In this document: one piece after another, positions 12,293 to 64,000 of the stretch
Position numbering within the stretch: position 1 is the first letter of the stretch
How the letters are laid out: every line of letters begins with the position of its first letter
NCBI GenBank assembly: GCA_022984795.1
Contig: JALIHJ010000049.1
Span: 1-64,000, forward strand
Direction of reading: 5' to 3'
Length of the DNA stretch: 64,000 nucleotides
Source of the DNA: Fabrea salina
Lineage: Eukaryota; Ciliophora; Heterotrichea; Heterotrichida; Fabreidae
The notes under the pieces: model-generated
What the model was told of the DNA's origin: nothing
What the model saw: the letters and a program-made list of their open reading frames with translations, nothing else
Databases searched by the model: none
Program-made: the position numbers and the translations under genes

Positions 12293-12661
12293 ATTTTTAT
12301 AACCAATGGACAATTTCCTCTGAAGAATTGCATGCTTTAAATCCCTAATTAGCGATTAAGTAGTTGGTGTGCTTGCAACGGTCACGTCAGTTTACAAACC
12401 TACACATAAAAGACCGCGAAAACCATCTCTTATAATTTAACCTGAGGCAATTTGGTTTCCCTCCCGAAGGTAACTGGACAGTGATTCACATAAACTCTTC
12501 TTTCTAAATATAAACTTATGAAGCTTATTTTCTGAGGCATTTACTTGAATTGCTCATTTATAGTTCAAGGACCACACAAAGTACACAATAGAATTCAGTC
12601 AGCACAACAATTGTTTAAAACAACAAAAACCCAGATTAGTCAACATTTAACTGAAATTATA
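12293..12661. other. Intergenic spacer (369 nt) upstream of the REJ-like receptor
   Basis: It lies between the receptor start (12292) and the stop of the MitoPLD-like gene (12662), both on the minus strand. It is one of the longest non-coding stretches in the window and probably carries the receptor promoter. No ORF, tRNA-like structure or clear repeat was seen. Confidence 0.4.
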
Positions 12662-17844: not shown

Positions 17845-18126
17845 TTAGAGAGGGTCGTTCAAAGTCTTTCCAGACTCAACTTTAGACAAAGAAGGGGCTT
17901 CACCAGTGTGGGGAAGGGGCTTAAACACAACAGCGTGTAAAAAGTCGCCGTCTGCTTCTATCTTGAGTTTGTAGTTGGTGCCAGCAACTACTTGAGTAGT
18001 GTACTGATTCACTCTGAAAGTGTTAAAGCTCTTCCCAAGTTCTTGTTCTATGCTGGCCTTAACAGAGTCAGCAATTGCCTGGGCGTCTTCGTCAGCTGGT
18101 TTAGGTGCAGAGTGTCCTCCTAACAT
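17845..18126 (-). CDS. Cystatin (stefin-type cysteine protease inhibitor)
   Basis: A 93-aa cytosolic stefin-like inhibitor with no signal peptide. It has an N-terminal Gly-Gly (MLGG), the central hairpin QVVAGTNYKLKI (QxVxG motif) and a C-terminal FKPLPHTGEAP segment, the three elements that plug papain-like protease active sites. Length matches stefins A and B (about 98 aa). It starts only 2 nt after the stop of a second, divergent cystatin upstream on the same strand. Confidence 0.9.
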   Translation of the reverse strand: MLGGHSAPKPADEDAQAIADSVKASIEQELGKSFNTFRVNQYTTQVVAGTNYKLKIEADGDFLHAVVFKPLPHTGEAPSLSKVESGKTLNDPL

Positions 18127-18128
18127 CT

Positions 18129-18404
18129 TTATATTATTATAGGGTCTTGTAAACTCATTCCTCTTTTAACACTGGTAAGTCTTAGTTTCCCAGAAAGGGG
18201 CTTATACACAACAGCGTGCAGGAACTCCCCGCTGTCAGTTCTTATTTTAAGTTTATAGTTATTCAAGTTTTGCTTGCAGTAGGAGTGGACATAAAATATC
18301 CCAAGTCTTCTATTCAGCTTTTTCTCAATATCAGACTTAACAGAGAACGCAAGTTCCTGGGAAAACTTGTCTCCTAGTTTAGGAGCAAAGTACAGTCCTG
18401 CCAT
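18129..18404 (-). CDS. Divergent cystatin-like protein
   Basis: A 91-aa protein that aligns with the neighbouring cystatin along its length: LYFAPKLGDKF against HSAPKPADED, NYKLKIRTDSGEFLHAVVYKPL against NYKLKIEADGDFLHAVVFKPL. The inhibitory QVVAG loop is replaced by YCKQNLN and the N-terminal Gly pair is altered. It is a tandem duplicate that has probably changed or lost papain-like protease inhibition. It lies 2 nt before the cystatin start and 6 nt after the stop of the DHHC gene, all on the minus strand. Confidence 0.75.
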   Translation of the reverse strand: MAGLYFAPKLGDKFSQELAFSVKSDIEKKLNRRLGIFYVHSYCKQNLNNYKLKIRTDSGEFLHAVVYKPLSGKLRLTSVKRGMSLQDPIII

Positions 18405-18410
18405 TAATTA

Positions 18411-23760: not shown

Positions 23761-24225
23761 ATGGCTAGCCAGCGTAATTTATATGAAGTGCTGCAAGTAA
23801 AAAAGACTGCTAATTCACAGGACATTAAAAAAGCTTATAAGAAGCTTGCACTTGAGTGGCACCCTGATAAAAACCCTAACTGCGCCTTTGAGGCAAAAGC
23901 AAAGTTCCAAGAAATCAAAAATGCTTACAACACACTGTGCAATTCAGAAAAACGAGACGAGTACGACTTAGCCGACAAGGGCCACAGAAAAACAACCAAG
24001 CAAAAAGACGACTTACTTTCAAACATTCTTGCGCAGGTTAACAAGTTTCAAAAGCATTCTGAGACCAAGGAAAGCTTTTTAGCACAGTTCGAAAGAGCTA
24101 AGCGACAAAGAGTAAGCACCAGAAAACCCCCAGAAGAAGAAGAAAGCTGCGACTCTGACGAAGCTTGGGAGTGGGTTTACGGAACTTCTTGCAGTTCCGC
24201 TAAAAAAAAACGCAGTGCTAGATAA
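23761..24225 (+). CDS. J-domain (DnaJ/Hsp40-type C) co-chaperone
   Basis: A 154-aa protein with a canonical J domain at about residues 6-70: [25 protein letters not shown], the HPD motif within EWHPDKNP, then [21 protein letters not shown]. There is no Gly/Phe or zinc-finger region, so it is a type III (DNAJC) co-chaperone that stimulates Hsp70 ATPase. The C-terminal half is helical and charged, ending in an acidic patch ([10 protein letters not shown]), a Trp-Glu-Trp and a basic tail that might be a nuclear signal. It converges on the hydroxylase gene with 21 nt between stops. Confidence 0.9.
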
Positions 24226-24246
24226 TGTAATAATATTTATAGCTAT

Positions 24247-25488
24247 TTACACTGTTCTGATTTTGTGGTCTACCTTCACTACTTTGTTGCACCGGTCAAA
24301 AGTAGCCCTGAATGGTCTTGTGAGTGAAGACTCAAACTTCATACAGGCTGCTTTTGTTTCTCGCCAATCAGTTGAGTAGTAGTAAGTACTTTGTAAGTGT
24401 TCGCTGTCGTACATCTTATAACTAACTTTGTAAGGGTTGAAGGGCTTCCATTTGGTTGCTTTGCTAAGGCAATTCTGGATTTCGTCAGGAGAACTCAGAA
24501 TTCTAGCCCCATAGATTTCTTTGGCTCCTGAAAAGTCTGTTGCGACTCCTAGCTCCACTGAGTACACGTAAAGCCTCATCAGCCTGTCAATGTCATCTTG
24601 GATTGCGCCTAAAGAAGCCAAACCGAGTTCTTGCACGAAGTCAGCAAATTCTGGGTTAGCTAGCAAAGGAGCGTGGCCTATGGCAAAGTGAGCTAAGTCT
24701 GAGTCCACAGAGAAGTAAGGCTTGTTTGGGTGCCTTACATGCCAGCTCAAAGGAAACACTCTAAAGGCCAAGCAGTTCAAAAAGTCCCTGGTGTTGCATA
24801 TGTATGCAATTGGCTTAAGTGCAAAGTCGCTTTTTTCTTTCAGCCACTGGTTGATGTCTTTGGTTTGGGGGACTTTGGTTTGTTGGATTAAACCTTTTTG
24901 CCTCATCTCTTCAAGTCCTTTTAAAAAGTCTCTGCAGGCTACACCAGGTAGCAGTGGGTTCAAAGCTTTCAGTAAAGTCTCCCAGGTTTTAGTTTCTTCA
25001 GTGGTGTACTCAATTTCTGGTATTGGGTCAGCTATGGATACCTTCATAGCCGTGTTGCCTAGTTCTTGTCTTCTGTTCCAAAAGTTAGGGTCTGAGTACC
25101 CCGGGTGGTCTAAAGGAAGGCGGTAGATGTCTTGAGTGAGTTGGTTCAAGTCGCTTAATTTCCTGGGGAACCATGGAACTTCTTGGCTTCCAACTATAGA
25201 CACATCCTGGCAGACTTGTTTTACTTCCTGAATTAGTTGTTGAAACTCTTGGTTGTCAGGTGCCTGGAAGTCCAAAAGAAAAGTGTAGCCACTTTCAGAG
25301 TCCAAAACATTTGTTGGCATTGACTCTATGTGGGTAAGGTTGGAGTGGTGGTCCGAAAGAGACTGGATCACGTTTTTGAGCGCCTGGGGCCTTTCTTGGG
25401 GTAGTTTAAACATAAGTGTGTAGATGTCTTGGACTTCAAAACTATCCCTAACAGCTGCAAAGTTTCTGCAAATTCTGCGTAAAAACAT
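24247..25488 (-). CDS. Aromatic amino acid hydroxylase (phenylalanine-4-hydroxylase-like)
   Basis: A 413-aa pterin-dependent non-heme iron hydroxylase. An N-terminal ACT domain (about 20-100, with YTLMFKLPQERPQALKNV) precedes WFPRKLSDLN at the start of the catalytic domain. The core has NTRDFLNCLAFRVFPL---VRHPNKPYFSVDSDLAHFAIGH, where the two His match the iron ligands His285/His290 of human PAH, and YSVELGV supplies the Glu330 equivalent. The region around the first His departs from the usual PEPDxxHELLGH (here VDSDLAHFAIGH), so substrate or pterin binding may differ. The first 12 residues (MFLRRICRNFAA) look like a weak mitochondrial presequence, unusual for the family. The C-terminal tetramerisation helix is short. 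Confidence 0.9.
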   Translation of the reverse strand: MFLRRICRNFAAVRDSFEVQDIYTLMFKLPQERPQALKNVIQSLSDHHSNLTHIESMPTNVLDSESGYTFLLDFQAPDNQEFQQLIQEVKQVCQDVSIVGSQEVPWFPRKLSDLNQLTQDIYRLPLDHPGYSDPNFWNRRQELGNTAMKVSIADPIPEIEYTTEETKTWETLLKALNPLLPGVACRDFLKGLEEMRQKGLIQQTKVPQTKDINQWLKEKSDFALKPIAYICNTRDFLNCLAFRVFPLSWHVRHPNKPYFSVDSDLAHFAIGHAPLLANPEFADFVQELGLASLGAIQDDIDRLMRLYVYSVELGVATDFSGAKEIYGARILSSPDEIQNCLSKATKWKPFNPYKVSYKMYDSEHLQSTYYYSTDWRETKAACMKFESSLTRPFRATFDRCNKVVKVDHKIRTV

Positions 25489-37871: not shown

Positions 37872-39644
37872 ATGAGAGTGATCGATCATATCCAGGAGCG
37901 CAAACGCCAAGGAAAAGTTCCTTACTACTCCTTTGAGTACTTCCCACCTAAGACTGAGGAAGGCAAAGTGAACCTTAAAGACCGTGTAGAGCGCATGGTT
38001 AGTGACTTAGACCCCTTGTTCATCGATGTGACTTGGGGAGCAGGTGGCTCTACATCAGAAGCATCTTTGCAAGTGTCTCACTGGCTCCAAACCTACTCAG
38101 GAGCTGAAGTCATGATGCACTTAACCCTTACCAACATGTCTTTGGAAGATTTAGACAATGCACTTGAAAAGGCCAAAGAACTGGGCATCAACAACATTCT
38201 GGCTCTCCGAGGTGACCCTCCTAGTGGCCAAGAAAGGTGGGTTCCCCCTGGAGCTGGACTTGAGTACGCTTCCGACCTTGTGAGGTACATCAAGCAGAAG
38301 TACGGAGACTACTTTGGAGTTGCTGTAGCAGGGTACGCTGAAGGCCACGTAGACTGTGAAACCAGAGACCAAGACATAAGGAACCTCAAAACAAAGGTAG
38401 ACGCAGGAGCTGACTTAGTCATCACTCAGTTCTTTTACGACGTAGATACTTTCCTGGACTTTGTGGACAGGTGCAGAGAAATAGGCATTACTTGCCCCAT
38501 CATTCCAGGAATCATGCCCATCCAGAACTACCAAGGCTTCCACAAAATGACTACTTTTTGCCAAACAAAGGTTCCTCAGGAGATCCTTGACAGACTTGAA
38601 GAAATAAAAGACGATGAAGACGCTGTGAAGGACTACGGCGTTGAGTTGGGCACCAAGATGGTCAAGAAGATGATTGAGCACGGAATCGAAGGCTTCCACT
38701 TCTACACACTTAACTTGGAAAGGACAGTCCGCAGAACCCTAGAGAACCTAAACATCATCCAGAAAGAAAGAGACACTCCCTGGAGAAAGGTTGCAACCAG
38801 GCAGACCGAAGGAGTCAGACCTATCTTTTGGAACTACAGACCTAAGTCCTACATTGACAGGACCTATTCTTGGGACGACTACCCCAACGGAAGGTGGGGA
38901 GACTCCAGAAGTCCTGCCTTCGGCTTTTCATACCCGATGGAAAGGTACCCACTTTACACCCTTAAACAGCAAGAGTCCCTTATTAAAAAGTGGGGAACTC
39001 CAACTTCCATAGAAGACATTGAAGAAGTGTTTGTTAAGTTCTTGAAACACGAAATTGACAGACTTCCTTGGTACGAAGAAATTGTTGACAAGGAAACCCT
39101 AATCATCCAAAACTTACTGCAAAACATGAACAGAAAGGGCTTGCTCACCCTTAACAGTCAGCCACAAGTAAACGGACTCCCCTCCTCAAACCCTGGAGTA
39201 GGCTGGGGCCCCACTAAACCTGAAGGTTACATCTACCAACGTGCCTACATTGAGTTCTTCAGTCCCCAAAATAAAGTAGAAGACATCATTGAAGAACTTT
39301 CGAAGAACCCCACCATTTCCTATGTCGCAACTGACATTCAGGGCAACTTAAAAACCAACATTCCTGAAGGCACAACTATAGCTGCAACTTGGGGAGTTTT
39401 CCCTAACAGAGAAGTTGTGCAGCCAACCATTGTTGACAGAGACGTTTTCTACAACTGGTGGAGCAAAGAAGCTTTTAACGTTTGGTTGAACGAGTGGGGC
39501 TCCCTCTACGAAAAAGACTCTGAGTCTTACAACTTGCTCAAGTATATCCACGACACTTACTACTTGTTCATGGTAGTAGAGAACGACTACATCAAAGGAA
39601 ACATCGAAAAGGTATTTGAAAGAGTCCTTGAAAGGTTATCTTAA
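37872..39644 (+). CDS. MTHFR: Methylenetetrahydrofolate reductase
   Basis: A 590-aa protein. The N-terminal catalytic TIM barrel (about 1-300) carries YSFEYFPPKTEEG (catalytic Glu region), FIDVTWGAGGSTSE, MHLTLTNMSLED and ILALRGDPP (FAD/folate site). It makes 5-methyl-THF for methionine synthesis. The C-terminal half (about 330-590) is the eukaryotic SAM-sensing regulatory domain, with WDDYPNGRWGDSRSPAFG, GVGWGPTKPEGYIYQRAYIEFF and TWGVFPNREVVQPTIV. Length and order match eukaryotic MTHFR (about 600-656 aa), without the Ser-rich human N-terminal extension. The TAA stop directly abuts the stop of the convergent ALDH7 gene with no base between. Confidence 0.96.
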   Translation: MRVIDHIQERKRQGKVPYYSFEYFPPKTEEGKVNLKDRVERMVSDLDPLFIDVTWGAGGSTSEASLQVSHWLQTYSGAEVMMHLTLTNMSLEDLDNALEKAKELGINNILALRGDPPSGQERWVPPGAGLEYASDLVRYIKQKYGDYFGVAVAGYAEGHVDCETRDQDIRNLKTKVDAGADLVITQFFYDVDTFLDFVDRCREIGITCPIIPGIMPIQNYQGFHKMTTFCQTKVPQEILDRLEEIKDDEDAVKDYGVELGTKMVKKMIEHGIEGFHFYTLNLERTVRRTLENLNIIQKERDTPWRKVATRQTEGVRPIFWNYRPKSYIDRTYSWDDYPNGRWGDSRSPAFGFSYPMERYPLYTLKQQESLIKKWGTPTSIEDIEEVFVKFLKHEIDRLPWYEEIVDKETLIIQNLLQNMNRKGLLTLNSQPQVNGLPSSNPGVGWGPTKPEGYIYQRAYIEFFSPQNKVEDIIEELSKNPTISYVATDIQGNLKTNIPEGTTIAATWGVFPNREVVQPTIVDRDVFYNWWSKEAFNVWLNEWGSLYEKDSESYNLLKYIHDTYYLFMVVENDYIKGNIEKVFERVLERLS

Positions 39645-41180
39645 CTAAATATCGAACTTGACGCCTTGCGCAAGTGGTAGTTCGTCAGAGTAGTTAATGG
39701 CGCAAGTGCTTCTTCTCATGTACTGCTTCCAAGCGTCACTTCCACTTTCTCTTCCACCTCCAGTTTCTTTTTCCCCTCCAAAAGCACCTCCGATTTCAGC
39801 TCCAGAAGGTCCCATGTTCACGTTCACAAGACCTGTATCGGAGCCGTTAGGTCCTAGCCACTCCCACATGTTCTTCAAAGAAGTAGTGAAAATGCCACTG
39901 GAGAGTCCTTGTGGCACAGAGTTGTTCAGAGCTATTCCTTCTTCTAAGCTTGAAAACTTGAATATGTAAAGAATAGGGCAGAACAGTTCTTCCTTAACTA
40001 TGTCTGCCTCGTGCGAAATCTCAGCAATTGTAGGCTCTACGTAGTAACCAGGTTTATCGGTAAAGGCATTTCCCCCTGTTATTATGTTTCCGCCTTGGGC
40101 TTTGATTCTTTCAATCCCATCTAAGAAAATGTTAACTGAGTTCTGACTGTGCAGAGGCCCCATCAGTGTTGAGGAGTCTAGCGGGTCTCCAATGGTGATG
40201 TTTTTGTAAGCTGCTACTAGTCTTTCCTTAAAGGTGTCGTAAACAGACTCGTGGATGAGCATCCTTCTAAGTGAAGTGCATCTCTGACCTGCAGTTCCAG
40301 CTGCTGCAAACACACAAGCCCTCAAAGCTAGTTCTACGTCTGCGTCGTCCATAACTACAACAGCGTTGTTGCCTCCTAACTCCAACAAAACTTTTCCAAA
40401 CCTTTCATGAACTACTTGGCTGACGTACTTGCCTGTTTTGGTTGAACCAGTGAAAGAAACTAGTTTAACCCTAGGGTCTCTAATGAGCCCCTCGCCCACA
40501 ACTTCGACGGGTCCAGTAACTGTAGTTACAATCGCAGGAGGCAACCCGTTGTCGATCAGAACCTGAGTTACAATTCTGACTAGGGCTATTGTTACTAACT
40601 GAGTAGTGGGAGACCCTTTCCAAATCACGCAGTTACCGCAGGCCAAAGCAATAGCGCTGTTCCAGCCAAACACTGCACAAGGAAAGTTAAAGGCTGTAAT
40701 GACTCCACAGATTCCTAAAGGATTCCACATTTCCAAAAGTTGGTGTTTAGGTCTTTCAGAAGGAAGCACCTTGCCTTCAAGTTGCCTGCTCAAGCCCAAG
40801 GCAAAGTCACAGATGTCTATGAACTCCTGGACCTCCCCAAGACCTTCGCTGTAAATCTTGCCCATGACTAAGCTTACTAGTTTTCCTAAAGCTTCTTTTT
40901 TCTGGCGAACAGCGTCTCCTATCTGGCGGATAATATCGCCTCTTATAGGAGCTGGGGTGTTGCGCCATACCTTAAAAGCTTCCTCAGCGTTGGAAAGACA
41001 AGACTCTAGGTCTTCTTTGGTTCCCTGGCGTACTTTTGCTACAGCTTTGCCAGTGATAGGAGAATACTCCTGGACTTCTTCTCCACTGCCCCTCCAAGTT
41101 CCGTCGAAGCATCCGTCGTTAACTCGGTCCAAGCCTAACTCTGCTAAGAATTGGTAGTCTGCAAATGTCAGTTCTGCCAT
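39645..41180 (-). CDS. ALDH7A1: Aldehyde dehydrogenase 7 family (antiquitin)
   Basis: A 511-aa NAD-dependent dehydrogenase of the ALDH7 family, which oxidises alpha-aminoadipic semialdehyde in lysine breakdown. Family-specific stretches include the N-terminal YQFLAELGL, GKIYSEGLGEVQEFIDICDFALGLSRQLEG and HQLLEMWNPLGICGVITAFNFPCAVFGWNSAIAL. Catalytic residues are Glu in LELGGNN (about 266) and Cys in GTAGQRCTS (about 300). The C-terminal GAEIGGAFGGEKETGGGRESGSDAWKQYMRR-type end is intact (short quote: GGGRESGSDAWK). No mitochondrial leader is visible, so it is probably cytosolic. TAG stop; 0 nt to MTHFR. Confidence 0.95.
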   Translation of the reverse strand: MAELTFADYQFLAELGLDRVNDGCFDGTWRGSGEEVQEYSPITGKAVAKVRQGTKEDLESCLSNAEEAFKVWRNTPAPIRGDIIRQIGDAVRQKKEALGKLVSLVMGKIYSEGLGEVQEFIDICDFALGLSRQLEGKVLPSERPKHQLLEMWNPLGICGVITAFNFPCAVFGWNSAIALACGNCVIWKGSPTTQLVTIALVRIVTQVLIDNGLPPAIVTTVTGPVEVVGEGLIRDPRVKLVSFTGSTKTGKYVSQVVHERFGKVLLELGGNNAVVVMDDADVELALRACVFAAAGTAGQRCTSLRRMLIHESVYDTFKERLVAAYKNITIGDPLDSSTLMGPLHSQNSVNIFLDGIERIKAQGGNIITGGNAFTDKPGYYVEPTIAEISHEADIVKEELFCPILYIFKFSSLEEGIALNNSVPQGLSSGIFTTSLKNMWEWLGPNGSDTGLVNVNMGPSGAEIGGAFGGEKETGGGRESGSDAWKQYMRRSTCAINYSDELPLAQGVKFDI

Positions 41181-41214
41181 TTATTAAAGGACCACATTTT
41201 TTAAAGCACTTAAG

Positions 41215-43686
41215 TTAGTTAAAAGCTATGTCAAATACTTGGTGGTACTCTTCAACGAACTCAACTTGCATGTCCTTTTTAAGAGCATCGCTGAGTTCTT
41301 TCCAGTTGTGTTTGTTTTGGGCAGGAATAACTACTTTGTTGACTCCTTCTCTTTTAGCAGCAACAACTTTTTCTTTGAGACCTCCGATTGCAAGTACTTT
41401 CCCCGTTAAGGATATTTCCCCTGTCATCGCTAAGTTGTTAGTAACTGGAGTCCCCATTGCCAGACTTAGCATTGCTGTTGTAATTGTAATCCCTGCCGAG
41501 GGCCCGTCTTTGGGAGTAGCTCCTTCTGGCACGTGGATATGTATTGAGTTTTCGTCAAGGAAGTGGTTGCCTTTTTCGTGAGCGAACTTGCGAGCAAAGG
41601 TATAAGCTATTTGAATGCTTTCGGACATCACTTGCTTAAGGTTCCCCGTCATAGTTAGTCTGGGTTCCTTTTCTTCGCCAGAAAACTTAGACTTTGAAAT
41701 CTCAATGTACAAAGCAGAGCCTCCCATACTGGTGTAAGCCAAACCCATAACAACACCTGCGGGCAGTGTTTGGTACAACTTCCTTTGAGGAAAGTCTGGC
41801 TGCCCTGCGTACTCTGCTAAGTTTTCAGAAGTAATCTTTACAGGCTCTGAAAGACCCTCTACAATTTGTCTGGCAAGTTTTTCAAGCATTCTGGTGATTT
41901 TCTTTTGGAGACTTCTGACTCCAGCTTCCCTTGCGTAGTTCTCTATTAAGTAGGCTTTGGCTTCTTCATCGATGCTGAAAAGTTCAGTCTTTTCTTCAAG
42001 ACTAGTGTTTTTAATGGCTTCAGGAAGAAGGTGCCTGTTCAGAATCTGCATCTTTTCTTCAGCAGTGTAGCCTTCCACATGTATAATGTCCATTCTGTCC
42101 CTCAGTATAGGACTTATTTCTTCAGGAAAGTTAGCTGTAGTGATAAACAGTACTTTGCTCAGGTCCACAGTAGTGTCCAAGTAGTGGTCTAGGAAAGAGT
42201 TGTTCTGGGCAGGGTCTAGTATTTCTAACAAAGCATTTTCTGGAGATCCCTGGAAAGCTCTTCTGCCTAATTTGTCGATTTCATCAATCAAGATAAGTGG
42301 GTTTTCTGAACCAGTGTTTTTAAGAGCTGATATGAGTTTTCCTGGCTGGGCTCCGACGTAAGTGCGTCTGTGGCCCTTTAACTCAGAAACGTCCTCAAGT
42401 CCTCCCAAAGAGATTCTAAAGTACTTTCTGTTCAAAGCCTCAGCTATGGACTTAGCAATCGATGTTTTCCCTACTCCAGGAGGCCCTGTGAAGCACAGAA
42501 TCTTTCCTTTAGAGTGGCCTTTGAGAGTACTTACTGCCAAGAACTCAAGTATTCTGTCCTTAACAGACTTCATTCCGTAGTGGTCTCTGTCCAGAATTTC
42601 TTTGGCCTTTTTGATGTCAAGAGTTTCCTCAGTAAAGACTCCGTAAGGTAAACTAGTTAGCCAGTCTAAGTAAGTCCTAGTGATATGGAACTCGCCTGCT
42701 GCTTTTTCAGTCATCATTAGCTTGTCCATTTCTTCGTCAATCACCTTTTGGATGTGTTCTGGAACTTCTTTGCCTTCTAAGTTCTTTTGGTATTTTATCT
42801 TCAAAGTTTCTTTTTCGTCTTTGTCAAGTCCAAGTCTGTTTTTAATCAGGTTAAGTATTTCCCTGTACATGTGTTCTTCGCTGGCTTTGGCTATTTTGGA
42901 CTGGGCTTCTTCTTGCAGGTTCCTCATTGCGTTTCTCATTTGCAGGTGTTCTTGGAGCAGTTCTGTGGTTCTTTTGAGTCTTTCAGAAAAGTCAATTACT
43001 TCAAAAATGCCCTGCACCTTTTTAGTGTCGCACATGTAAGACAGCATAGTGCCTACGTAGTTCAAAAAGTCTTGGTCGTACCTCATGTTGAACCTTTGGC
43101 CTATAATTTCTAAGGTGGCCATTTCGCTGTTACTTAAGTGCGACTTGAGTTCTTCTAGCTTCTCCACAAGTAGCTTCATCATGGTTTGGTCGTCTTCATT
43201 CTGGATTTGGCTTTCTTCTTCGAAGTGATGCAATTTAACCAAAGGAAAAGGAGTTTCGCCTGAAGGAGGCTCTAGAACCTCTGCAAACTTCACTCGGTGC
43301 AAAGGGTCTAGGGTAATGGTTCTGTCGAATTTGTTAAAAGAAGTTTTGCAAAGAGCCCCAATGTCATAGATTGCGTCTAGATCTTTCAAAGAAACTATTG
43401 AGTGCAGAGCTAGGGACTCTAGTTCTTTGGTGTCTTCTCTGGGCTTTACTACAAAAGCACCTACTTGAGCTGTGTAGGAATCTGAGACCAAAAACTTGTA
43501 GAGTTCTGGGGACAGTCTGAATCTAATCAGATGCTTGGGGAAAATGGGGTGTCTTGGAATTGGCAGAACCCTTACTATTTCTGAGTTCTCTTTTTGGGCT
43601 TCCTCTGCTGGGCTTTCTTCAAAGGTGAACTCGTTGAAAAACCTTTTCATAGGCGACTTCTTAAAAGCCTTAATAGCTCTAAGCAT
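41215..43686 (-). CDS. LONP1: Mitochondrial Lon protease
   Basis: An 823-aa AAA+ serine protease of the mitochondrial matrix. The first 20 residues are basic and hydrophobic (MLRAIKAFKKSPMKRFF), a plausible presequence. The Lon N-domain (about 38-250) starts VLPIPRHPIFP. A helical linker follows, then the AAA+ module with Walker A GPPGVGKTS (about 402-410), the Lon-type ISLGGLEDVSELKGHRRTYVGAQPG, Walker B LILIDEIDKLG and an arginine finger region. The protease domain (about 620-815) carries catalytic Ser in KDGPSAG (about 728) and Lys in LTGKVLAIGGLKEK (about 770). It degrades damaged or regulatory matrix proteins. It is shorter than human LONP1 (959 aa), mainly in the N-terminal half. Confidence 0.96.
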   Translation of the reverse strand: MLRAIKAFKKSPMKRFFNEFTFEESPAEEAQKENSEIVRVLPIPRHPIFPKHLIRFRLSPELYKFLVSDSYTAQVGAFVVKPREDTKELESLALHSIVSLKDLDAIYDIGALCKTSFNKFDRTITLDPLHRVKFAEVLEPPSGETPFPLVKLHHFEEESQIQNEDDQTMMKLLVEKLEELKSHLSNSEMATLEIIGQRFNMRYDQDFLNYVGTMLSYMCDTKKVQGIFEVIDFSERLKRTTELLQEHLQMRNAMRNLQEEAQSKIAKASEEHMYREILNLIKNRLGLDKDEKETLKIKYQKNLEGKEVPEHIQKVIDEEMDKLMMTEKAAGEFHITRTYLDWLTSLPYGVFTEETLDIKKAKEILDRDHYGMKSVKDRILEFLAVSTLKGHSKGKILCFTGPPGVGKTSIAKSIAEALNRKYFRISLGGLEDVSELKGHRRTYVGAQPGKLISALKNTGSENPLILIDEIDKLGRRAFQGSPENALLEILDPAQNNSFLDHYLDTTVDLSKVLFITTANFPEEISPILRDRMDIIHVEGYTAEEKMQILNRHLLPEAIKNTSLEEKTELFSIDEEAKAYLIENYAREAGVRSLQKKITRMLEKLARQIVEGLSEPVKITSENLAEYAGQPDFPQRKLYQTLPAGVVMGLAYTSMGGSALYIEISKSKFSGEEKEPRLTMTGNLKQVMSESIQIAYTFARKFAHEKGNHFLDENSIHIHVPEGATPKDGPSAGITITTAMLSLAMGTPVTNNLAMTGEISLTGKVLAIGGLKEKVVAAKREGVNKVVIPAQNKHNWKELSDALKKDMQVEFVEEYHQVFDIAFN

Positions 43687-43737: not shown

Positions 43738-44958
43738 TTACTTTAACGATTTAAGAGTAAGTGCAGCACTTATGCCACAGACAAACCCCAGTGAAAGTAG
43801 TCCTCCAGCAGCAAGTATGTTTGTGTAGTGACTCTTTAGCATGCAAAGTAAAGAGCTCTCGGCTTTAGGTGGCTGGGCTTCGCCTTCGATTGTAAAGCCA
43901 TTGTCTAGCATCCATTGGTCGTTTACAAACTTAGTCATGTAATTGCGCATAGAATCTGGAAGTATTACAACTACCCTTTTTCCGGCTGGAAGCGACTTAG
44001 CAACTTGGATGGCTGCCCACATATTGGCGCCAGCAGTGCCTCCTACCATAAGCCCTTCGTGCTTTATAAGGTTCCTAGCAGTAGAGAAGCAGTTTTGGTC
44101 GTTGACTTTAATCCACCGGTCCACTAAGTTGCGGTTGCAAGTTCTAGGCACAAAATCATAGCCTATTCCTTCTACCTTGTAGGGACCAGAAGCTGCGTTT
44201 TCTGGATCTGATATTATGGAACCTTCAGGGTCAGCCGCTACTATTTGAACGTTAGGCAACTTTTCCTTGAGTTTCCTTGAAAGTCCAGTTAGTGTGCCGC
44301 CTGTGCCTGCTGAAACCACAACGTAGTCAAGCTTGCCATCACACTGTTCAAGGATCTCTTCAGCAGTAGTGTCATAGTGAGCTAAGGGATTTGAAGGGTT
44401 GGAAAACTGGTCAAGAATTACTGAATTGGGCAACTCAGACTGTAACTTCTTTGCAACACCTGCTATGCTTTCTGGGGAACCAAAAGGAGCTCCAGGACAC
44501 CTTACAACTTGAGCCCCAAATGCTTTCAGAGTGTCACTTTTTTCTGTTGACATCTTCTCGGGCATAGTAACGATGAGCTTGTACCCCTTGACAGCAGCTG
44601 CCATTGCTAAAGCAATTCCAGTGTTTCCAGCAGTTGCTTCGATTAGAGTGTATCCAGGAGAAATTCTGCCAGTCTTTTCAGCGTCCTCAATGATTCTGCG
44701 GCCAATTCTGCACTTGACTGAGCCTCCTGGATTCAAGTACTCGCACTTTGCCAAAACTTCGCACTGAATATTTTCTTTTTTGCAGAGCGAATTCACACGC
44801 ACCATAGGAGTGTTGCCTATGGCATCAAGGACACTGTTGCAAATCTTAGGAGTAGGAGCGTGGCATTCTTTGGTGTGAGGTGAAGGTTTTTCACTGTTGA
44901 GACTCCACTTGCAAGGTGTCTTTGTGTATCTGATGTCAAAGGATTTAGCGTGTGACAT
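43738..44958 (-). CDS. Tail-anchored cystathionine beta-synthase paralog lacking CBS domains
   Basis: A 406-aa protein starting at ATG 44958 (MSHAKSFDIRYTKTPCKW), which aligns with the start of the other CBS gene; the upstream frame begins only at TTG. The heme-type Cys (TPCKW) and His (SPH) are present, and so are the PLP Lys (K82) and GTGGT. Neighbouring residues that are invariant in CBS differ: SVKDR has become SVKCR, TSGNTG is TAGNTG and GGSSGS is GGTAGA. The Bateman pair is missing. It is replaced by a linker and one hydrophobic segment at the extreme C-terminus (about 378-402, LAAGGLLSLGFVCGISAALTL), a typical tail anchor for the mitochondrial outer membrane or ER. It is a PLP-fold paralog, possibly with altered or lost catalysis. 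Confidence 0.85.
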   Translation of the reverse strand: MSHAKSFDIRYTKTPCKWSLNSEKPSPHTKECHAPTPKICNSVLDAIGNTPMVRVNSLCKKENIQCEVLAKCEYLNPGGSVKCRIGRRIIEDAEKTGRISPGYTLIEATAGNTGIALAMAAAVKGYKLIVTMPEKMSTEKSDTLKAFGAQVVRCPGAPFGSPESIAGVAKKLQSELPNSVILDQFSNPSNPLAHYDTTAEEILEQCDGKLDYVVVSAGTGGTLTGLSRKLKEKLPNVQIVAADPEGSIISDPENAASGPYKVEGIGYDFVPRTCNRNLVDRWIKVNDQNCFSTARNLIKHEGLMVGGTAGANMWAAIQVAKSLPAGKRVVVILPDSMRNYMTKFVNDQWMLDNGFTIEGEAQPPKAESSLLCMLKSHYTNILAAGGLLSLGFVCGISAALTLKSLK

Positions 44959-45046
44959 TTTGTGGCTGGAAGTTTTTATTACTGCCACAATATGGTTTAG
45001 AAAACTTAAGTCCAACTAATAACAACTCTTAAAGTTCTTAGTTAAT

Positions 45047-46837: not shown

Positions 46838-47452
46838 TTAAGCTTTTGACACTCTCTTTATTGTTACTTGGCCTTCAATCCCTATGAAGCCTTTGATTTT
46901 AGTTGCCTTTTTCATTGCAGTGTTTTTAGACATTGTTTCTAAGACTTTTAAGTCAGTTCCGTTCTTCAAATACATGACTACTTTGTAGTGCATAGAGTTT
47001 TTGTACTCGTGCTTTACACTTTCTTTGTAAAGACCTACATCAGTGATGCTCTTCAAAGAGTAACTTTGGTGTTTCCACTTAAAAAACAAAACCCATTTGG
47101 TCCTTTGGAACAAACCAGCAACCTTGTCAATAGTCACCACTTCCACTTTTCCAAAGAACAAAAGCACTGCACTTATCAAGTAAAAAACTAGAATTAACAC
47201 GTACTGCCACCAAAACCCTTCGTCATACCCGTTGAACAGTTTGATGTCTGAAGTAAGGTGCAGCAGCAGTAATGTATTCACGGCTACAATGAAAATCGAT
47301 AAGCTCCAAACAGCCCAAGGAAGTCTCCGCATAGTTAAGGACTCTCCTTCTTCGAAGCTATCGATGTCCACATCTTCTAGGTTGCAAGAGTCTTTTGTCG
47401 CAGAAGAGTTCTTAAGTGTCTTTTTAGCTAGTGATTCTTTTCTGTCTAACAT
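46838..47452 (-). CDS. Two-TM membrane protein with PH-like C-terminal domain
   Basis: A 204-aa protein. The open frame runs 43 codons further upstream into the cyclin H gene, but the ATG at 47452 (MLDRKESLAKK) lies just after the cyclin stop and is the likely start. The N-terminal 42 residues are acidic and Ser-rich. Two membrane helices lie at about 46-66 and 80-100 with a short loop. The C-terminal 100 residues are soluble and beta-rich (FGKVEVVTIDKVAGLFQRTK, MHYKVVMYLKNGTDLKVLE), like bacterial-PH or photosystem-assembly-type domains on 2-TM proteins. Family not recognised. Confidence 0.65.
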   Translation of the reverse strand: MLDRKESLAKKTLKNSSATKDSCNLEDVDIDSFEEGESLTMRRLPWAVWSLSIFIVAVNTLLLLHLTSDIKLFNGYDEGFWWQYVLILVFYLISAVLLFFGKVEVVTIDKVAGLFQRTKWVLFFKWKHQSYSLKSITDVGLYKESVKHEYKNSMHYKVVMYLKNGTDLKVLETMSKNTAMKKATKIKGFIGIEGQVTIKRVSKA

Positions 47453-47468
47453 AAACTTATCATATTTA

Positions 47469-48317
47469 TTACTCGTGCTTCTTTTTGTGAGCAGCTTTTT
47501 TAAGTCCGTGTCTGATGTTGCTTGACTTCTTAATGAGGTTTTTAAGTAAGTTTTGGAACTCAGGGATCTCTTGCTGTACACTTAAAACTTGTTGTTTGAT
47601 TTCTTGGTAGCACTTAAAGAACTCTTCACGTGAAAACCGAACCAGTCCAATGATTTCTTCCAGCAAGTCTTCTTTGTCAATTCTGTCTTCAACAGCCCAG
47701 TAAAACCCGCAAACAGCCACTAACCCAGGAGTAAACATTAAGTTGACTTCTGTTAAAAACGTAAGGTTGACGAAGTCTATAGCTGTTGTGTAGCAAGTTT
47801 CTGGAATATTTTTTGGCGAAATGTGAGAAAAAATGTAAGTTAGGGGCTTGTCAGGCGAAAACACGTAAAGTTGGAAGTCAAGTCCTGATATCAACAAAAC
47901 TTCGTACTGCAGAATCCTTTTTGGGTCGCTTTGTTTGAAGTGCGAGCAAAAGTTGTTGGCGTCTCTGATGTTGATTTCTTCAGTTTTGCAGGCCAAAAAC
48001 AAAGCTGTGAACATCATGTTGATAGCGTCGTACTCGCATATGTAATGCTTAAGTAAAAACCTTCGGAAGTAAGTAGCTGCAGTGGCTTTAGCTTTATTGG
48101 AGATTTCTAAGTGGTCTGCAGCTTTTAGTAAGTTGCTTGTGAGTATCGAAATTAGTTTGCTCTCTTCATCTGGGGTGAGTATGAATTTATCGATTTCTGG
48201 AATGAACTGACTGGCTTTGTCCAAGAAGTTTTGGATTTTTGTGTTGTGTAAGTCCTGGAGTTGTTCTCTGTTAAAAGTCCAGTGCTTTTTCTGGGTTGAT
48301 GTTAAGAAGTTAGGCAT
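47469..48317 (-). CDS. CCNH: Cyclin H (CDK-activating kinase/TFIIH)
   Basis: A 282-aa protein. STQKKHWTF at residues 7-15 is the cyclin H N-terminal signature. The first cyclin fold has KAKATAATYFRRFLLKHYICEYDAINMMFTALFLACKTEE (MRAIL-like and conserved Lys), and ILQYEVLLISGLDFQLYVFSPDKPLTYIF leads into the second fold (about 155-245). The C-terminal helix is basic (KKAAHKKKH). Cyclin H pairs with CDK7 and MAT1 to phosphorylate CDKs and the RNA polymerase II tail as part of TFIIH. It is slightly shorter than human (323 aa). 16 nt separate it from the genes on each side, all on the minus strand. Confidence 0.92.
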   Translation of the reverse strand: MPNFLTSTQKKHWTFNREQLQDLHNTKIQNFLDKASQFIPEIDKFILTPDEESKLISILTSNLLKAADHLEISNKAKATAATYFRRFLLKHYICEYDAINMMFTALFLACKTEEINIRDANNFCSHFKQSDPKRILQYEVLLISGLDFQLYVFSPDKPLTYIFSHISPKNIPETCYTTAIDFVNLTFLTEVNLMFTPGLVAVCGFYWAVEDRIDKEDLLEEIIGLVRFSREEFFKCYQEIKQQVLSVQQEIPEFQNLLKNLIKKSSNIRHGLKKAAHKKKHE

Positions 48318-48333
48318 TTATAAGTTAAATAGT

Positions 48334-48813
48334 TTAGTTAGGTTCTTTTTGCTTTTTCTTCTTCTTCCGTTTGGGTTCTTCTGGGTCTTCGTGAACTACT
48401 TGACTACTAACAGCTAAAACACCTGCAATACTAACTCTAGCTTTAAGTATAGTTTCTTGTGGAACACCTTCTAAGTTAGTAACTACTTGGACTTGGTTTT
48501 GAATACCTTCTAAGTTAGGAGCTTCTTGGACTTGACTTGCACCCATACATAAACAAACACTAACTGATTCTCTACAAAACTTGAAACAGGCACTAAATGC
48601 ACTTCCAATGGTACCAAAAAAGTCTTTGCACTCATAAAAACACTTTTCAAATAAGTCACAGCCCTTGTCTGAGCAACACCCTAACACACCTTTGCAGGTT
48701 TGAGAACAACACCCACTTGAACAAGCCTCTAAAACTTTGGGAATGCAACTTGCACACTCTGAAATAATAATGCAGGGACAGCAAACTAGTCCCAAAATCC
48801 CATCGTCCCCCAT
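48334..48813 (-). CDS. Cys-rich protein of unknown family, tandem copy 1
   Basis: A 159-aa protein. The first 95 residues hold about 19 Cys in short clusters (CCPC, CSSGCCSQTC, GCCSDKGC, CFYEC, CFKFC, CLC). The N-terminus is MGDDGILGL, so Gly2 is available for myristoylation and the early CCPC for palmitoylation. Residues about 96-120 have two short repeats (NLEGIQ, NLEGVP), then a Val/Ala segment and a very basic tail (KRKKKKKQK). The N-terminal half is almost identical to the gene at 48967-49584. Unlike metallothioneins, the Cys are mixed with hydrophobic residues, so membrane attachment or a disulfide/metal-bound fold are both possible. Function unknown. Confidence 0.7.
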   Translation of the reverse strand: MGDDGILGLVCCPCIIISECASCIPKVLEACSSGCCSQTCKGVLGCCSDKGCDLFEKCFYECKDFFGTIGSAFSACFKFCRESVSVCLCMGASQVQEAPNLEGIQNQVQVVTNLEGVPQETILKARVSIAGVLAVSSQVVHEDPEEPKRKKKKKQKEPN

Positions 48814-48966: not shown

Positions 48967-49584
48967 TTATCTACTTTTTTTCTTCCGCTTTTCTTTCTTC
49001 TTACTTTTAGGTTCTTCTTGGTCTTCGTTTGCTTCACTTGCTTCATTATAAACAGCGAAAGCAACTACACCGCCAGCTTTAAGTGCATCTACTTGTAAGT
49101 CAGGAAGTATTTGAGTTGCGTCTTGAATGTTTTCTAAGTTAGTAACCGCTCTCCCTGCATCTTGGATGCCTTCTAAATCAAAAACTTCTATGCCTCCAAC
49201 TTGAATTTCTCCTAAATTAGGAACTGCTCCTTCGATCCCAATCGCTTCTTGGATACCTTCTAAGTTGGTAACTCCTTCAAGTTGGTTAGTAACCTTCTGG
49301 ACTTGACTTGCACCCATACATAAACAAACACTAACTGACTTTCCACAAAACTTGAAACAAGCACTAAATGCACTTCCAATGGTACCAAAAAAGTCTTTGC
49401 ACTCATAAAAACACTTTTCAAATAAGTCACAGCCCTTGTCTGAGCAACACCCTAACACACCTTTGCAGGTTTGAGAACAACACCCACTTGAACAAGCCTC
49501 TAAAACTTTGGGAATGCAACTTGCACACTCTGAAATAATAATGCAAGGACAGCAAAGTAGTCCCAAAATCCCATCGTCCCCCAT
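48967..49584 (-). CDS. Cys-rich protein of unknown family, tandem copy 2
   Basis: A 205-aa paralog of the gene at 48334-48813. Residues 1-95 differ at only a few positions, and about 25 bp before the ATG are also shared, so the duplication or a conversion is recent. The C-terminal half is longer, with several degenerate repeats of N-LEGIQ-A type (LEGVTNLEGIQEA, FDLEGIQDA, NLENIQDA), an acidic stretch and the same basic KKKEKRKKK tail. The repeat number clearly varies between copies. Same predicted features: Gly2, clustered Cys, no signal peptide, no clear membrane helix. Function unknown. Confidence 0.7.
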   Translation of the reverse strand: MGDDGILGLLCCPCIIISECASCIPKVLEACSSGCCSQTCKGVLGCCSDKGCDLFEKCFYECKDFFGTIGSAFSACFKFCGKSVSVCLCMGASQVQKVTNQLEGVTNLEGIQEAIGIEGAVPNLGEIQVGGIEVFDLEGIQDAGRAVTNLENIQDATQILPDLQVDALKAGGVVAFAVYNEASEANEDQEEPKSKKKEKRKKKSR

Positions 49585-52678: not shown

Positions 52679-54892
52679 TTAACTATATTGCTTTTTCAAA
52701 AAACACTCCCTAATTATCACTCCTACGAACTTGCCCTTCCGTGTGACGTAAATTTGTCTCAACCCCAGCATTATAAATAAAAAGTGGACTTTTGCTAAGG
52801 GGGTATTTTCGCTGATAGCTAGGGGTGCGTAATCGATTTCAATGTTTTTGTCCCTGTAGTCGATGTAGGTGTTCCAGAACCTAGAAACTTCTTCTTCTTC
52901 TGTGAACTTTTCAGTGATGTCGATGTTCTTGATCTTTAGGCCCATTTCCTTAATGACTCCTGTCTAAATGTAACTTACGTATGGGTAGGTTGACAACTGG
53001 TAAACCCTTTCAAAGTACTTACTAAGCATTCTTGAGGAGTAGTTGGACATTTCTCTTTTTGCACTTAAAAACTTCTGGTGGAAGTGCTTTCTGAGGTCTT
53101 TAAGAGTGATTTCTCCTATAAGGAAGTTGTCTTCGTCTAAAACAGGAACTATGTATAACTCGTTCATGTTAGCAATGAAAACCTTCCAGAGTTCTTTAAG
53201 AGTAGAGTCTTTACTAAGACAACTCAGCCTAGTAACCATAACGTGTTTAGCTTTTTTCTTGTAAAGTCTTGAAGGCCTCAGAGCAGGCATGTAAGGCAAG
53301 CCTTTTATCTGCAGCATCACGTCGTAGATCGAAATGCTAATAGCGTTTCCAACAGCAAAACTTATAAGCACTCCTACTAACATGTAAGTCATGTAGTTTA
53401 GTTGCCCAGTAAGTTCAAACACAATCACTGCCACTGAAATGGTGTGTGTAACTGAAGAAGTTAGTGCTGCTGCACCCACTATTGCATACACTCCTTGCAA
53501 GTGGAATCCAAACACCCAGTTCATCAAGCCTCCCCAAAGCCTTCCAAACACTGCACCTGTAGTAAAAATAGGCGTAAACACTCCACAAGGTATCGGACAA
53601 CTAATACTGATCGAAGTCATAAACAGCTTTGCTAGTGTAAAAACTAACAAACTAACGTAAATGTTGGGAGTGACCCATCTAGAGTCCTCGATTTCGTACA
53701 AAGAGTCAGCTTGGAACATGTCGTTGATCACTTTTTTGTCACTAAGTTGAAAGAAAGGCGACGAAAAAGTGATTAAGGAGCACACTATGCACACAAGTAT
53801 AGTGTAAGGAAACCTTTTCGAAAGACTTCCGAGAACTTGTGCTTTGCGCATGCAAATGAGTTTACTAGCACACGTCACAAAAGTAGCTCCTAAAACTCCA
53901 CAGATAACTCCTAGTATCAAAAAGCTGAGGACTTGCCAGTTAAAAGTGATTTCTGTGTACTTGGTAACGTAAATCAGGTCAGTTAGTTCTGTTTGGTGCA
54001 GTATAGTAAACATTAAGCTGCACCAAACCGCACAGTAAAACGCTTTCCAAAGGTTACTGACAACATAGTAAGTAGCAGTGACTTCTATACTAAATAGCAC
54101 CCCTCCAATAGGGGCTCCGAAGGTTGCACAAACTCCAGTGGCCACAGCTGAAGCCAGTATTTGATTGTGCAAAGTAGTGTTTTCTAAGATGTGCTTGAAA
54201 AAAGGCACATGCTTACACAACTTGTGGGCTATTATAGCTGAGATGTGCACAAAGGGCCCTTCTTTGCCAATGCTAAGGCCAGCTCCACTTGCAGCGATTA
54301 AACCCACTACTTTAGAAGACAGAGTTGGAAAAGACAAAAACCTAAATATGTTGACTCCTGCCAGTATAGACTTCATCTCAGGAATTCCAGAACCCTCTGC
54401 GTCTTGGCTTAAAAACGCACCGCACAAAGCTGCCACCACTCCAAAAAACAACCCAAAGATCAGCCACATCACCAATCCTGTAGTAAAACTCATGTAGTCA
54501 TTGATGCATATAACCATCCTTGCTTCAAGTAACTTAGCTGCTACGAAGTCCACAGCAAAAGCCACTATCGCACAAATCACTCCTAGTATTGCTAAGTGGA
54601 CCCAAGCTGAAGGGTTGAGTATATGGAAGCTTCTGAGAAGTTTCTGAAACTTACTGAGCTTAACTTTTTCGTATCCATCTAAGTTGAACGAGACTTTAGT
54701 AGCTTCATTGATGTTGGTCATAAAATCAGTGACTATGTACCTTGAAAGGCGGAGATCTTCTTCTTGGTTGTTAATTTCTTGGTCATCTTCTTTTTCAGAA
54801 ACGTTTGTGGGGAAGCGTTTTATGAAGTTCTTTAGTTCGATTGCTTGGTTGTTTGAAGGGATTCTTAAGTAGTCAGACTTTCTTTCTTCCAT
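52679..54892 (-). CDS. ClC-type chloride channel with two CBS domains (one 15-nt intron)
   Basis: Two exons, 54892-52979 and 52963-52679, encode 732 aa. Without removing the intron the frame stops after 642 residues, and a separate 88-aa frame holds the second CBS domain (APLAISENTPLAKVHFLFIMLGLRQIYV--GKFVGVI); splicing joins them in frame (YPY-TGVIKEMG). ClC filter motifs are present: GSGIPEMK, GKEGPFVH (gating Glu) and PCGVFTP. In GVLFSIEVTATYY the proton glutamate of exchangers is Val, as in ClC-0/1/2/K channels, so a chloride channel rather than a Cl/H antiporter is likely. The C-terminal CBS pair regulates gating by nucleotides. About 10-12 membrane helices (residues 85-540). Confidence 0.93.
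52964..52978 (-). other. 15-nt spliceosomal intron
   Basis: On the minus strand the intron reads GTAAGTTACATTTAG: a canonical GTAAGT 5' site and TAG 3' site in 15 nt, phase 0. It introduces an in-frame TAG, and its removal restores a continuous ClC protein. The length is that of heterotrich ciliate introns. Confidence 0.93.
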
Positions 54893-61081: not shown

Positions 61082-61423
61082 TTAGTTATTCTGGCTTAGT
61101 AATTGGTCTGTACGCATGATTAAGAATCCAAAGCCTTTTTTAGAATTCAAATTGTTGTTTGAAAAGATATGTTTTACTTTGCTTTTGGTCTTTGAGGGGA
61201 AGTACTTCCTTACAATAGCTCTTTTGTTTTTGCTTGAAAGGAAGTCTGTGACAGCAACTCCGTCAGACTTAAAGCCCTTAGGCTTTAAACAGATTTCTCT
61301 TTTCCAAGATGGAAGCGACAGTACTTCGTCAGTAGGGGAATCAAAAAGAACTAAGTTGGTTTTCTTCGAGAAAGTTCTTTTAATAGGCGGAATTTTCAAG
61401 AGAGGAAGGTTTCCTTTGTCCAT
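61082..61423 (-). CDS. Small basic hypothetical protein
   Basis: A 113-aa protein, starting at ATG 61423 (MDKGNLPLLK); the frame is open further upstream but runs into the next coding region. It is rich in Lys, Ser and Phe (LFDSPTDEVLSLPSWKREI, KYFPSKTKSKVKHIF). No domain, signal peptide or membrane helix was recognised. It lies 53 nt downstream of the second polycystin-like gene's stop. Confidence 0.5.
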   Translation of the reverse strand: MDKGNLPLLKIPPIKRTFSKKTNLVLFDSPTDEVLSLPSWKREICLKPKGFKSDGVAVTDFLSSKNKRAIVRKYFPSKTKSKVKHIFSNNNLNSKKGFGFLIMRTDQLLSQNN

Positions 61424-61476
61424 AAGTGCTTTAAATAGAAATATCAGAACGGTTAAAGATGTTTTAGTTAAAGATG

Positions 61477-64000
61477 TTACTTGAAGATTAAGAACTTTAA
61501 GAGGGCTCTTAGAGTTTGGGATAGTAGTACCTCTAGAGCCACTCCTGATAGGCAGATACAAGCCCATATTTGAGACCAAACGCCACAAATTTCTGAGCAT
61601 AAGTACCCAGAGAATCCCAAAGCAATGCCACCAATAATCAAACACCCAACTGTAACTCCCACAGCAGAACCCTTACTTCTAGCAAGTTTCAAAACTACTT
61701 CGATAACCCCCATAAACACCAAACAGATTCCCATCGCCAGAAGTAATGTCTTTGCTTCTTCAAAACTTAAATCAAAAAGGTCTTTGTCTTCAGAGTCGGT
61801 GTCTTCTAAAAGCCACATTGCTCCTCCAATTAGGGCGCCCAAAACCATAAACTCCATTGCTAGCAAAGCTGAATACAAACTTCTAATAGGAGTATCCTTA
61901 ACAAATAAACCAAAGGTCAGATGGTTCTGCATGAAGGTTTTTGATTTTTTTAGTTCAGTGTTAATAGGTTCTGGGACTCCGTTTTCTTCTTCGCTAACTT
62001 TTTCGTTGTTGGTCGTGTGGACATAAGAGTCTTCGTTGTTTGTGAAAGTTATGTCTTTTACAGGGACTACTGCTGACTGTTCTTTGACTTTGTCAGTTTT
62101 TGAGAACTTAAAGGCAAGGACAATTCCCAAAACAAACAATATAGACAACATATATAAGGGGTAAAAAGACTTTGAGCATCCTTCTTCTGAGTTTTTAGGT
62201 AGTGGTTGTTTAGTTTCTTCTTCTGCAGTCACTACTGACTCTGCTTTTTTAGGTTGCAAGCTGAAGGTTGAAGTGTGAGTCACATTTATAATGGCTGAGT
62301 TACTTCTGACTTCTGAGATTTGGCAGCCTTCTTCTACCCACTCTTCGTCTTTTAGGTATCCGCAGCTCCAGTTTCCAATGTTAGTATGGAAAGGAATCTC
62401 AATAATTATAGGCTCAGTTAGGTTGTTGAGAGAGTAAAGAGACCTGTCTTGAAGGTCTAAGTTGAATCCAGAGTAACTTCCTCCTTTGAAGAAGCTTAGG
62501 TCAACTATGTCTGAGTAGTTGCCTGCTTGTTTGTAACTGGTCAGTTCTATGTCTACAACGTCGTTTTCACCAAAGAGTAAATAATCTGGGAGAGTTAAAA
62601 TAGAGTCTGAGACTCTTTTGGAGAAATTCTTGAACTTTTTGGATACTTCAGTCATCCTGTAGGTAGTGATGTAGCCTATTTCAATGGTCTTTGGCTCATT
62701 TTCAGGAGTGGAGTTTTTAAAGTACTTGTTGAACACTTTGCTGATGAGTTCTTGGGTCTTCTTAAGTACTTTGTTGTTTAAGTTGAACTTTTCAGTCAGG
62801 CTTTTTGCACTGTCCATGAGTAGTTCAGTGTCTTCTTGGAGTATTTCTAGTTCGAAGTCCAGCATGGACAGGGCCAGGTCTACTAGTTCCAGAGTTTGAG
62901 ACTCGTTGGTGTTTTCTTCACTCATCATGGCTGAAATGGCTCCGATGGTGTTGCTGTAAGTAGCTTTATCAATGTCTTCTAGGTCCTGAGAGAACTCTTT
63001 GAGTTTAGACAGCATAGTTGTGATGGCTGCTTGTTCCAGTTCAAGACTCTCACAGTACATAAGCACAGTGCCAGGAATGAGTTCGGGGTCCTTGACGTCT
63101 TCCAGGAAGGCTTCTGAAACAGACTTCTCTTCCAGTCTCCTTCTGGAAACTGAACCTACAGTGAAGGACTCTTTGTAGTACTCACAACTCCACATTGAGT
63201 CACACACCATGGCAAAGAGGGTGTTGGTGCCAGGCAGTAACTTAGTAGTCACCTTGTTGGAGAGTCTGGGAGGAGCTAAGGGGATGTAGAAGCCGTGCCA
63301 CATAAGTCCAAAGGAGTAGAATAAGGGGTAGTCTTCTTCGTCACCGTCAAAACAGTCCACAATGCTAAGCTCAAACTCAGTGGAAAGAGCAGAACCTGTA
63401 GAAGGACTCATTTCCAAACCTCCTAAACAAGAAGGTCCTACGTTGGTGTTCCAGGGAATAGTCATTGCAAGGGAGCCTCCTGCTGGGCTAGAAAGAGTTA
63501 CTTGCCAACCGTAGTAAGAACCAGGAGACATTGAGTAGGCAGGGAAGTAGATGTAAGGGCTCTGCAGAGGAGTTGTAGGAGTGAGAGTAGGTCCTAACAC
63601 TTGGTTCCACTGAATGCTGTTTTCCAGGGAGCTCTGGACTGAAAGTGGAACTAAGAGTTCCCATTGGTGGTTAATTTTGAAAAGAGGTTTGGATATTTGG
63701 ATTTCTGTGTTACCCATCTCAACTACTTCTAGTTCCACACACTTCTCGGTCTTCTCTAGTGTCCTTGGAAACCTTCGCGCAGAAGTAGTAGAAGGCCCCA
63801 GGTCTTAGTTCCTCAGACTCAATTTGCAGTATAGACCCAGTTTGTTCAGTGTCTAGTAGCTGTTCTCCAGAAGTGCTTTCACAATAGTCTTTGCCAGGTT
63901 CAGTGCAAGTCCACTCAAACTCCAGTGAGCCTTGCGAGTTGTCTGGATCGTAGGACTCACTGGCGTCTAGTCTCAGGTCTTTTCCGTTGGAGATCTGTCC
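61477..64000 (-). CDS. Second polycystin-1/REJ-like receptor, 3' part, with a frameshift
   Basis: A paralog of the C-terminal third of the 2431-aa receptor (4997-12292), running off the window edge. The frame 61477-63738 encodes 753 aa from the beta region through the GAIN-like segment (CGYLKDEEWVEEGC), TM1 (LYMLSILFVLGIVLAF), the NHLTFGLFV motif and four more helices. Upstream of about 63750 the same protein continues in another frame (FYYFCAKVSKDTRE, matching the paralog) up to the window end. The shift is a 1-nt excess within GAAGACCGAGAAGTG compared with GAAGCCCAGAAGTG in the paralog. It is not explained by a 15-16-nt intron. It is therefore a pseudogene, a sequencing or assembly error, or a programmed shift; the intact downstream 753 codons favour an error or a very recent lesion. 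Confidence 0.7.

What the first reader, a model, noticed from the sequence alone, without database searches (positions are those of the whole stretch)
52964..52978. A 15-nt intron splits a ClC channel from its second CBS domain
Minus-strand GTAAGTTACATTTAG has ideal ends and restores a 732-aa ClC with both CBS domains when removed. Introns this short are known from heterotrich ciliates and demand an unusual spliceosome geometry. It is the strongest taxonomic marker in the window.
Basis: partly seen in the sequence, partly recalled or inferred. Interest (0 to 1): 0.75.

Follow-up and report, generated by a model that had tools for sequence, protein, structure and literature searches.

The report
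Ordinary 15-base intron, heterotrich ciliate
A chloride-channel gene is interrupted by what looks like a genuine 15-base intron of the kind already known by the thousand from Stentor and its relatives, so it is a good clue to the organism but not a surprise.

Summary
GTAAGTTACATTTAG lies at 52964-52978, minus strand. Kept, it adds four codons and a TAG after codon 638; removed, it gives a 732-residue ClC protein with both CBS domains. It has the published Stentor coeruleus layout: 15 nt, GTA start, A at position 10, AG end, 73% A+T. S. coeruleus has 8173 annotated 15-nt introns (PMC9505925); about 95% of heterotrich introns are 15 bp (PMC11441545).

Rivals are weak. Of six TAG-ended gene calls only this one continues far in frame (94 codons; others 1, 2, 3, 10, 25). 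At most 53 of 8859 simulated one-base nonsense changes touch such a 15-mer. There is no RNA evidence, and the junction lies in a poorly conserved linker, so the exact splice sites rest on the motif.

The window reads with the standard code, is GC-richer than the two Stentor gene sets in PMC10384029, and shows one detectable intron in 38 gene calls. Likely source: a Stentor-like or other standard-code heterotrich, species not identified. A new example of a known kind, of low interest.

The parts
52979..54892 (-). ClC gene, exon 1 (638 codons: ClC membrane domain and first CBS domain)
52964..52978 (-). 15-nt intron GTAAGTTACATTTAG, phase 0; if kept it reads VSYI then TAG; putative branch-point A at intron position 10 (52969)
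   Evidence: layout compared with PMC9505925
52679..52963 (-). ClC gene, exon 2 (94 codons and TAA: linker and second CBS domain)

Best explanation
The 15 nt are a spliceosomal intron of a heterotrich ciliate that uses the standard genetic code. The spliceosome would join the 5' splice site to the A at position 10, making a lariat loop of about 10 nt with a 5-nt tail, and then join the exons. The mRNA then encodes a 732-residue ClC channel or transporter with two CBS domains. If the intron is kept, translation ends four codons later and the second CBS domain is lost. Shown: the sequence, the restored frame, homology of both halves to ClC proteins. Inferred: splicing itself, the branch point, the organism.
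For: Frame restoration and 732 aa. Both halves in order along CmCLC, ClC-2 and ClC-1; Pfam CLC plus two CBS. Layout as in S. coeruleus: 8173 of 8806 introns are 15 nt, 8005 of 8806 are counted with the A at position 10, A+U 75.63% (PMC9505925 section 2.1), GUA stringently conserved; here 15 nt, GTA, A10, A+T 73%. Standard code: of 38 gene calls (this ORF counted unspliced) 30 end TAA, 6 TAG, 2 TGA. Only this TAG of six has a long in-frame continuation (94 codons; others 1, 2, 3, 10, 25). Of 99 GT..AG candidates of 12-40 nt bypassing gene stops, four were 15 nt, and the only 15-nt ones reopening 25 codons or more were two overlapping ones in this gene. At most 53 of 8859 simulated one-base nonsense changes touch a GTA-N6-A-N3-AG 15-mer.
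Against: No transcripts. The junction is in a poorly conserved linker, so homology does not fix the splice sites; other GT..AG choices also restore the frame. The second CBS match is weak on its own. Open length alone is weak evidence: 204 of 2109 points just downstream of the other gene stops also have 94 or more open codons (neighbouring genes are close). It is the only intron detected in 38 gene calls, where about seven intron-bearing genes would be expected at the S. coeruleus rate (P of one or fewer 0.005). No excess of the pattern at length 15 inside the ORFs (10 seen, shuffle mean 12.6, sd 3.5).
Confidence: 0.92

Rival explanations
1. The TAG is read through or is a sense codon, giving a 737-residue protein without splicing.
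For: The frame is open on both sides of the TAG. Reassigned stops are known in ciliates: UGA is tryptophan in Blepharisma (PMC9942806), and context-dependent stops are described in PMC10553269.
Against: TAG ends five other gene calls with only 1-25 codons to the next stop. The TAG sits exactly at the end of a 15-mer with the published intron layout.
Confidence: 0.03
2. A nonsense mutation or sequencing error: the stop is a defect of the gene copy or of the assembly, not an intron.
For: The window holds at least one apparent one-base frameshift, in a partial paralogue near 63750.
Against: At most 53 of 8859 random one-base nonsense changes (0.6%) touch a Stentor-type 15-mer, and 2 of 8859 a GTAA...TAG form (this narrower form was chosen after seeing the site). 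The downstream half keeps CBS homology and an open frame.
Confidence: 0.03
3. A true stop: the channel ends after its first CBS domain, and the second CBS reading frame is a separate or relict ORF.
For: The upstream ORF alone holds the ClC membrane domain and one CBS; the downstream ORF has its own ATG at 52945.
Against: The four PDB alignments shown carry both matches in the same order, and the pieces are in one frame once 15 nt go.
Confidence: 0.02

Closest known systems
Stentor coeruleus 15-nt spliceosomal introns (PMC9505925; genome paper Slabodnick 2017 not held, not seen)
   Same: Length, GTA start, A at position 10, AG end, A+T richness, standard genetic code, most genes without introns.
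   Different: The window's codon-position GC (46.0/36.2/44.0%) is above S. coeruleus (42.79/32.80/22.66%) and S. roeselii (44.26/33.29/34.22%) in PMC10384029 Table 1. One intron detected in 38 gene calls.
Blepharisma stoltei introns, predominantly 15 and 16 bp (PMC9942806)
   Same: Intron length class and a compact, gene-dense genome.
   Different: Blepharisma reads UGA as tryptophan and is 66% AT; here the genes read with the standard code and 2 of 38 gene calls end in TGA.
Loxodes magnus introns (PMC11441545)
   Same: Very short introns in the sister group of heterotrichs.
   Different: Mode 17 bp, under 16 bp negligible; UGA can be stop or tryptophan.
CmCLC (3org), ClC-2 (7xf5) and ClC-1 (6coy)
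   Same: ClC membrane domain, then matches to both CBS regions; top-scoring solved relatives.
   Different: The stretch around the junction is not covered by these alignments.

Membership tests
Heterotrich 15-nt spliceosomal intron | 15 or 16 nt long, GT..AG | tested here: met
   15 nt, GTAAG...TTTAG; literature
Heterotrich 15-nt spliceosomal intron | A at position 10 (putative branch point) | tested here: met
   Position 10 is A; in S. coeruleus 8005 of 8806 introns
Heterotrich 15-nt spliceosomal intron | Removal restores a conserved reading frame | tested here: met
   732 aa with both CBS domains
Heterotrich 15-nt spliceosomal intron | Actually removed from the mRNA | not testable with these tools
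   No RNA reads available
Heterotrich 15-nt spliceosomal intron | Host is a heterotrich ciliate | tested here: inconclusive
   Standard code and dense genes fit; no whole genome is held and no ciliate sequence could be compared
Heterotrich 15-nt spliceosomal intron | Host genome has introns in about 18-20% of genes | tested here: inconclusive
   One detected in 38 gene calls, fewer than that rate predicts, but introns without an in-frame stop would go unseen and one 64-kb window is not a genome
ClC chloride channel/transporter with two CBS domains | Voltage_CLC domain followed by a CBS pair | tested here: met
   Pfam PF00654 and two PF00571 stretches in the joined protein; the second is weak alone

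The most novel reading that the evidence does not exclude
The window comes from an undescribed, GC-rich, standard-code heterotrich with far fewer introns than Stentor, in which this one 15-nt intron is kept because retaining it would drop the second CBS domain: a regulated splice switch of the channel.
Probability: 0.05. Interest if true: 0.45.

Novelty: new member of a known kind. Interest (0 to 1): 0.2.

Why it matters
It gives a sound gene model for the ClC channel and, with the standard code, a strong hint that the window is from a Stentor-like ciliate. It also warns that a gene caller blind to 15-nt introns will cut such genes short. It adds one example to a documented class of introns that strain ideas of spliceosome geometry, but does not by itself open that question.

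Tried and rejected
Window-wide intron search with codon-usage scores: 21 candidates, which overlap called ORFs, or in one case (47442-47472) bridge two neighbouring ORFs; none was followed by a homology test, and the search missed the ClC intron, so codon scores were dropped. Search over the stops of the 38 gene calls for GT..AG of 12-40 nt: 17 of 99 candidates reopened 25 codons or more. Four of the 17 are in the ClC gene. Those from 14951 and at 47442 run into the next gene on the same strand. The rest (3380-3404, 24215-24250, 400-424, 39627-39662, 41209-41238, 14943-14975) were not tested further. Hidden stop-free 15-nt introns inside ORFs: no excess over synonymous shuffles. Rfam families at their gathering scores: none; tRNAs by ARAGORN: none. 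Relatives of the ClC in viral contigs: none confirmed. The genome-contig scan (bacteria and archaea) was not used. No structure was predicted.

Papers not held and not seen: Slabodnick 2017, Zhang 2022 on Fabrea, Zheng 2025 on Stentor. Seen: PMC9505925 (abstract, outline, passages, section 2.1); passages only of PMC9942806, PMC10384029 (with rows of Table 1), PMC10946202, PMC11308186, PMC10553269, PMC13059789, PMC11441545 and PMC10980511; search listings.

Full report
Observation. Reading the minus strand, the ClC ORF 52964-54892 ends ...TYPY-VSYI-TAG, and its last 15 bases are GTAAGTTACATTTAG at 52964-52978. Taking them out joins codon 638 to a 94-codon continuation that ends in TAA at 52679, giving 732 residues.

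Is the joined protein real? phmmer against solved structures gives 55 distinct sequences at E up to 1e-10; the best is CmCLC (3org, E 5.3e-96). Alignments were shown for four (CmCLC, ClC-2 and two ClC-1 sequences), and in all four both halves align in order: 99-602 and 679-724 for CmCLC, 96-595 and 677-723 for ClC-2, 98-615 and 681-724 for ClC-1. The downstream stretch is weak taken alone (i-Evalues 0.00073 to 0.013). Pfam gives Voltage_CLC at 151-515 and two CBS stretches in the joined protein; the upstream piece holds one CBS (549-604) and the downstream piece a weak one (E 0.0025, below its cut-off). The junction, after residue 638, lies between the CBS domains, outside those alignments. 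So homology shows that both halves belong together but not exactly where the splice sites are.

Does it look like a known intron? PMC9505925 (section 2.1) reports for S. coeruleus 8806 annotated introns: 8173 of 15 nt, 633 of 16 nt, the branch-point A at position 10 in 8005, A+U 75.63%, and introns in 18.14% of genes; it calls the first three bases GUA stringently conserved. The candidate is 15 nt, begins GTA, has A at position 10, ends AG and is 73% A+T. PMC11441545 states that about 95% of heterotrich introns are 15 bp and the rest 16 bp; PMC9942806 gives predominantly 15 and 16 bp for Blepharisma stoltei.

Controls. There are 38 gene calls (ATG to stop, at least 150 codons, little overlap) covering 93% of the window; they end TAA 30, TAG 6, TGA 2 (this counts the ClC TAG, a gene cut by the window end, and perhaps a spurious ORF at 61082-61600). 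For the six TAG-ended calls the next in-frame stop is 94 codons away for ClC and 1, 2, 3, 10 and 25 for the others. All GT..AG stretches of 12-40 nt that start within 90 nt of the stop and bypass it were tried: 99 candidates, 17 reopening 25 codons or more. Four of the 99 were 15 nt long; the only 15-nt ones reopening that much were two overlapping ones in this gene. The 65 Stentor-pattern 15- and 16-mers in the window gave ten with at least 20 open codons on both sides and a stop when kept. Two of these are in frame in a called gene: the ClC one, and a 16-mer at 46852-46867 near the end of another gene with 43 open codons, its homology not tested. As a null for mutation or sequencing error, 53 of 8859 simulated one-base nonsense changes touched a GTA-N6-A-N3-AG 15-mer, an upper bound because touching does not always remove the stop; 2 of 8859 touched a GTAA...TAG form, a narrowing chosen after seeing the site.

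Results against. There is no RNA. Open length alone is weak evidence, since 204 of 2109 points just downstream of the other gene stops also have 94 or more open codons. Only one intron is detectable in 38 gene calls; at the Stentor rate of 18% of genes, one or fewer has probability 0.005, though 15-nt introns without an in-frame stop would not be seen. A count of such hidden candidates found no excess (10 at 15 nt against a shuffle mean of 12.6, sd 3.5). Other overlapping GT..AG choices also keep the frame.

Organism. Standard code, dense genes and a 15-nt intron point to a heterotrich. PMC10553269 names Fabrea salina, Litonotus pictus and S. coeruleus as canonical-code ciliates; that Litonotus is not a heterotrich is from recall. 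GC at codon positions 1-3 is 46.0/36.2/44.0%, above S. coeruleus (42.79/32.80/22.66) and S. roeselii (44.26/33.29/34.22) in PMC10384029 Table 1. So it is probably not S. coeruleus; the species is open. The seven other proteins given to Pfam include MTHFR, Lon protease, VPS13, a gamma-tubulin complex component, a protein kinase and a cystatin; the seventh had no match.

Verdict. Most likely a real, ordinary heterotrich intron.

Noticed in passing
61477-64000, minus strand (extra base near 63750): A partial paralogue of the large gene at 4997-12313, 86% identical over a 1780-column DNA alignment, has one extra base relative to it near 63750, which breaks the frame; sequencing error, a dead copy or frameshifting cannot be told apart.
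   Followed up: partly
17848-18407, minus strand: Two adjacent small ORFs that look alike by eye; the first matches the Pfam cystatin family (E 1.6e-11), the second has no Pfam match at E 0.001. They lie in the largest gap between the gene calls.
   Followed up: partly
48334-48813 and 48967-49584, minus strand: Two tandem cysteine-rich proteins whose first 95 or so residues are almost identical by eye (MGDDGILGL...), with different tails; apparently recent duplicates, function unknown.
   Followed up: no
16274-17743 and 43738-45015, minus strand: Two genes that look like cystathionine beta-synthases (named by recall, no family search run); the second is shorter and ends in a hydrophobic stretch.
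   Followed up: no
whole window: Strong preference for C-ending codons in Asn, Asp, Tyr and His (AAC 833 against AAT 190, for example) with GC at third positions of 44%, above the published values for two Stentor species.
   Followed up: partly
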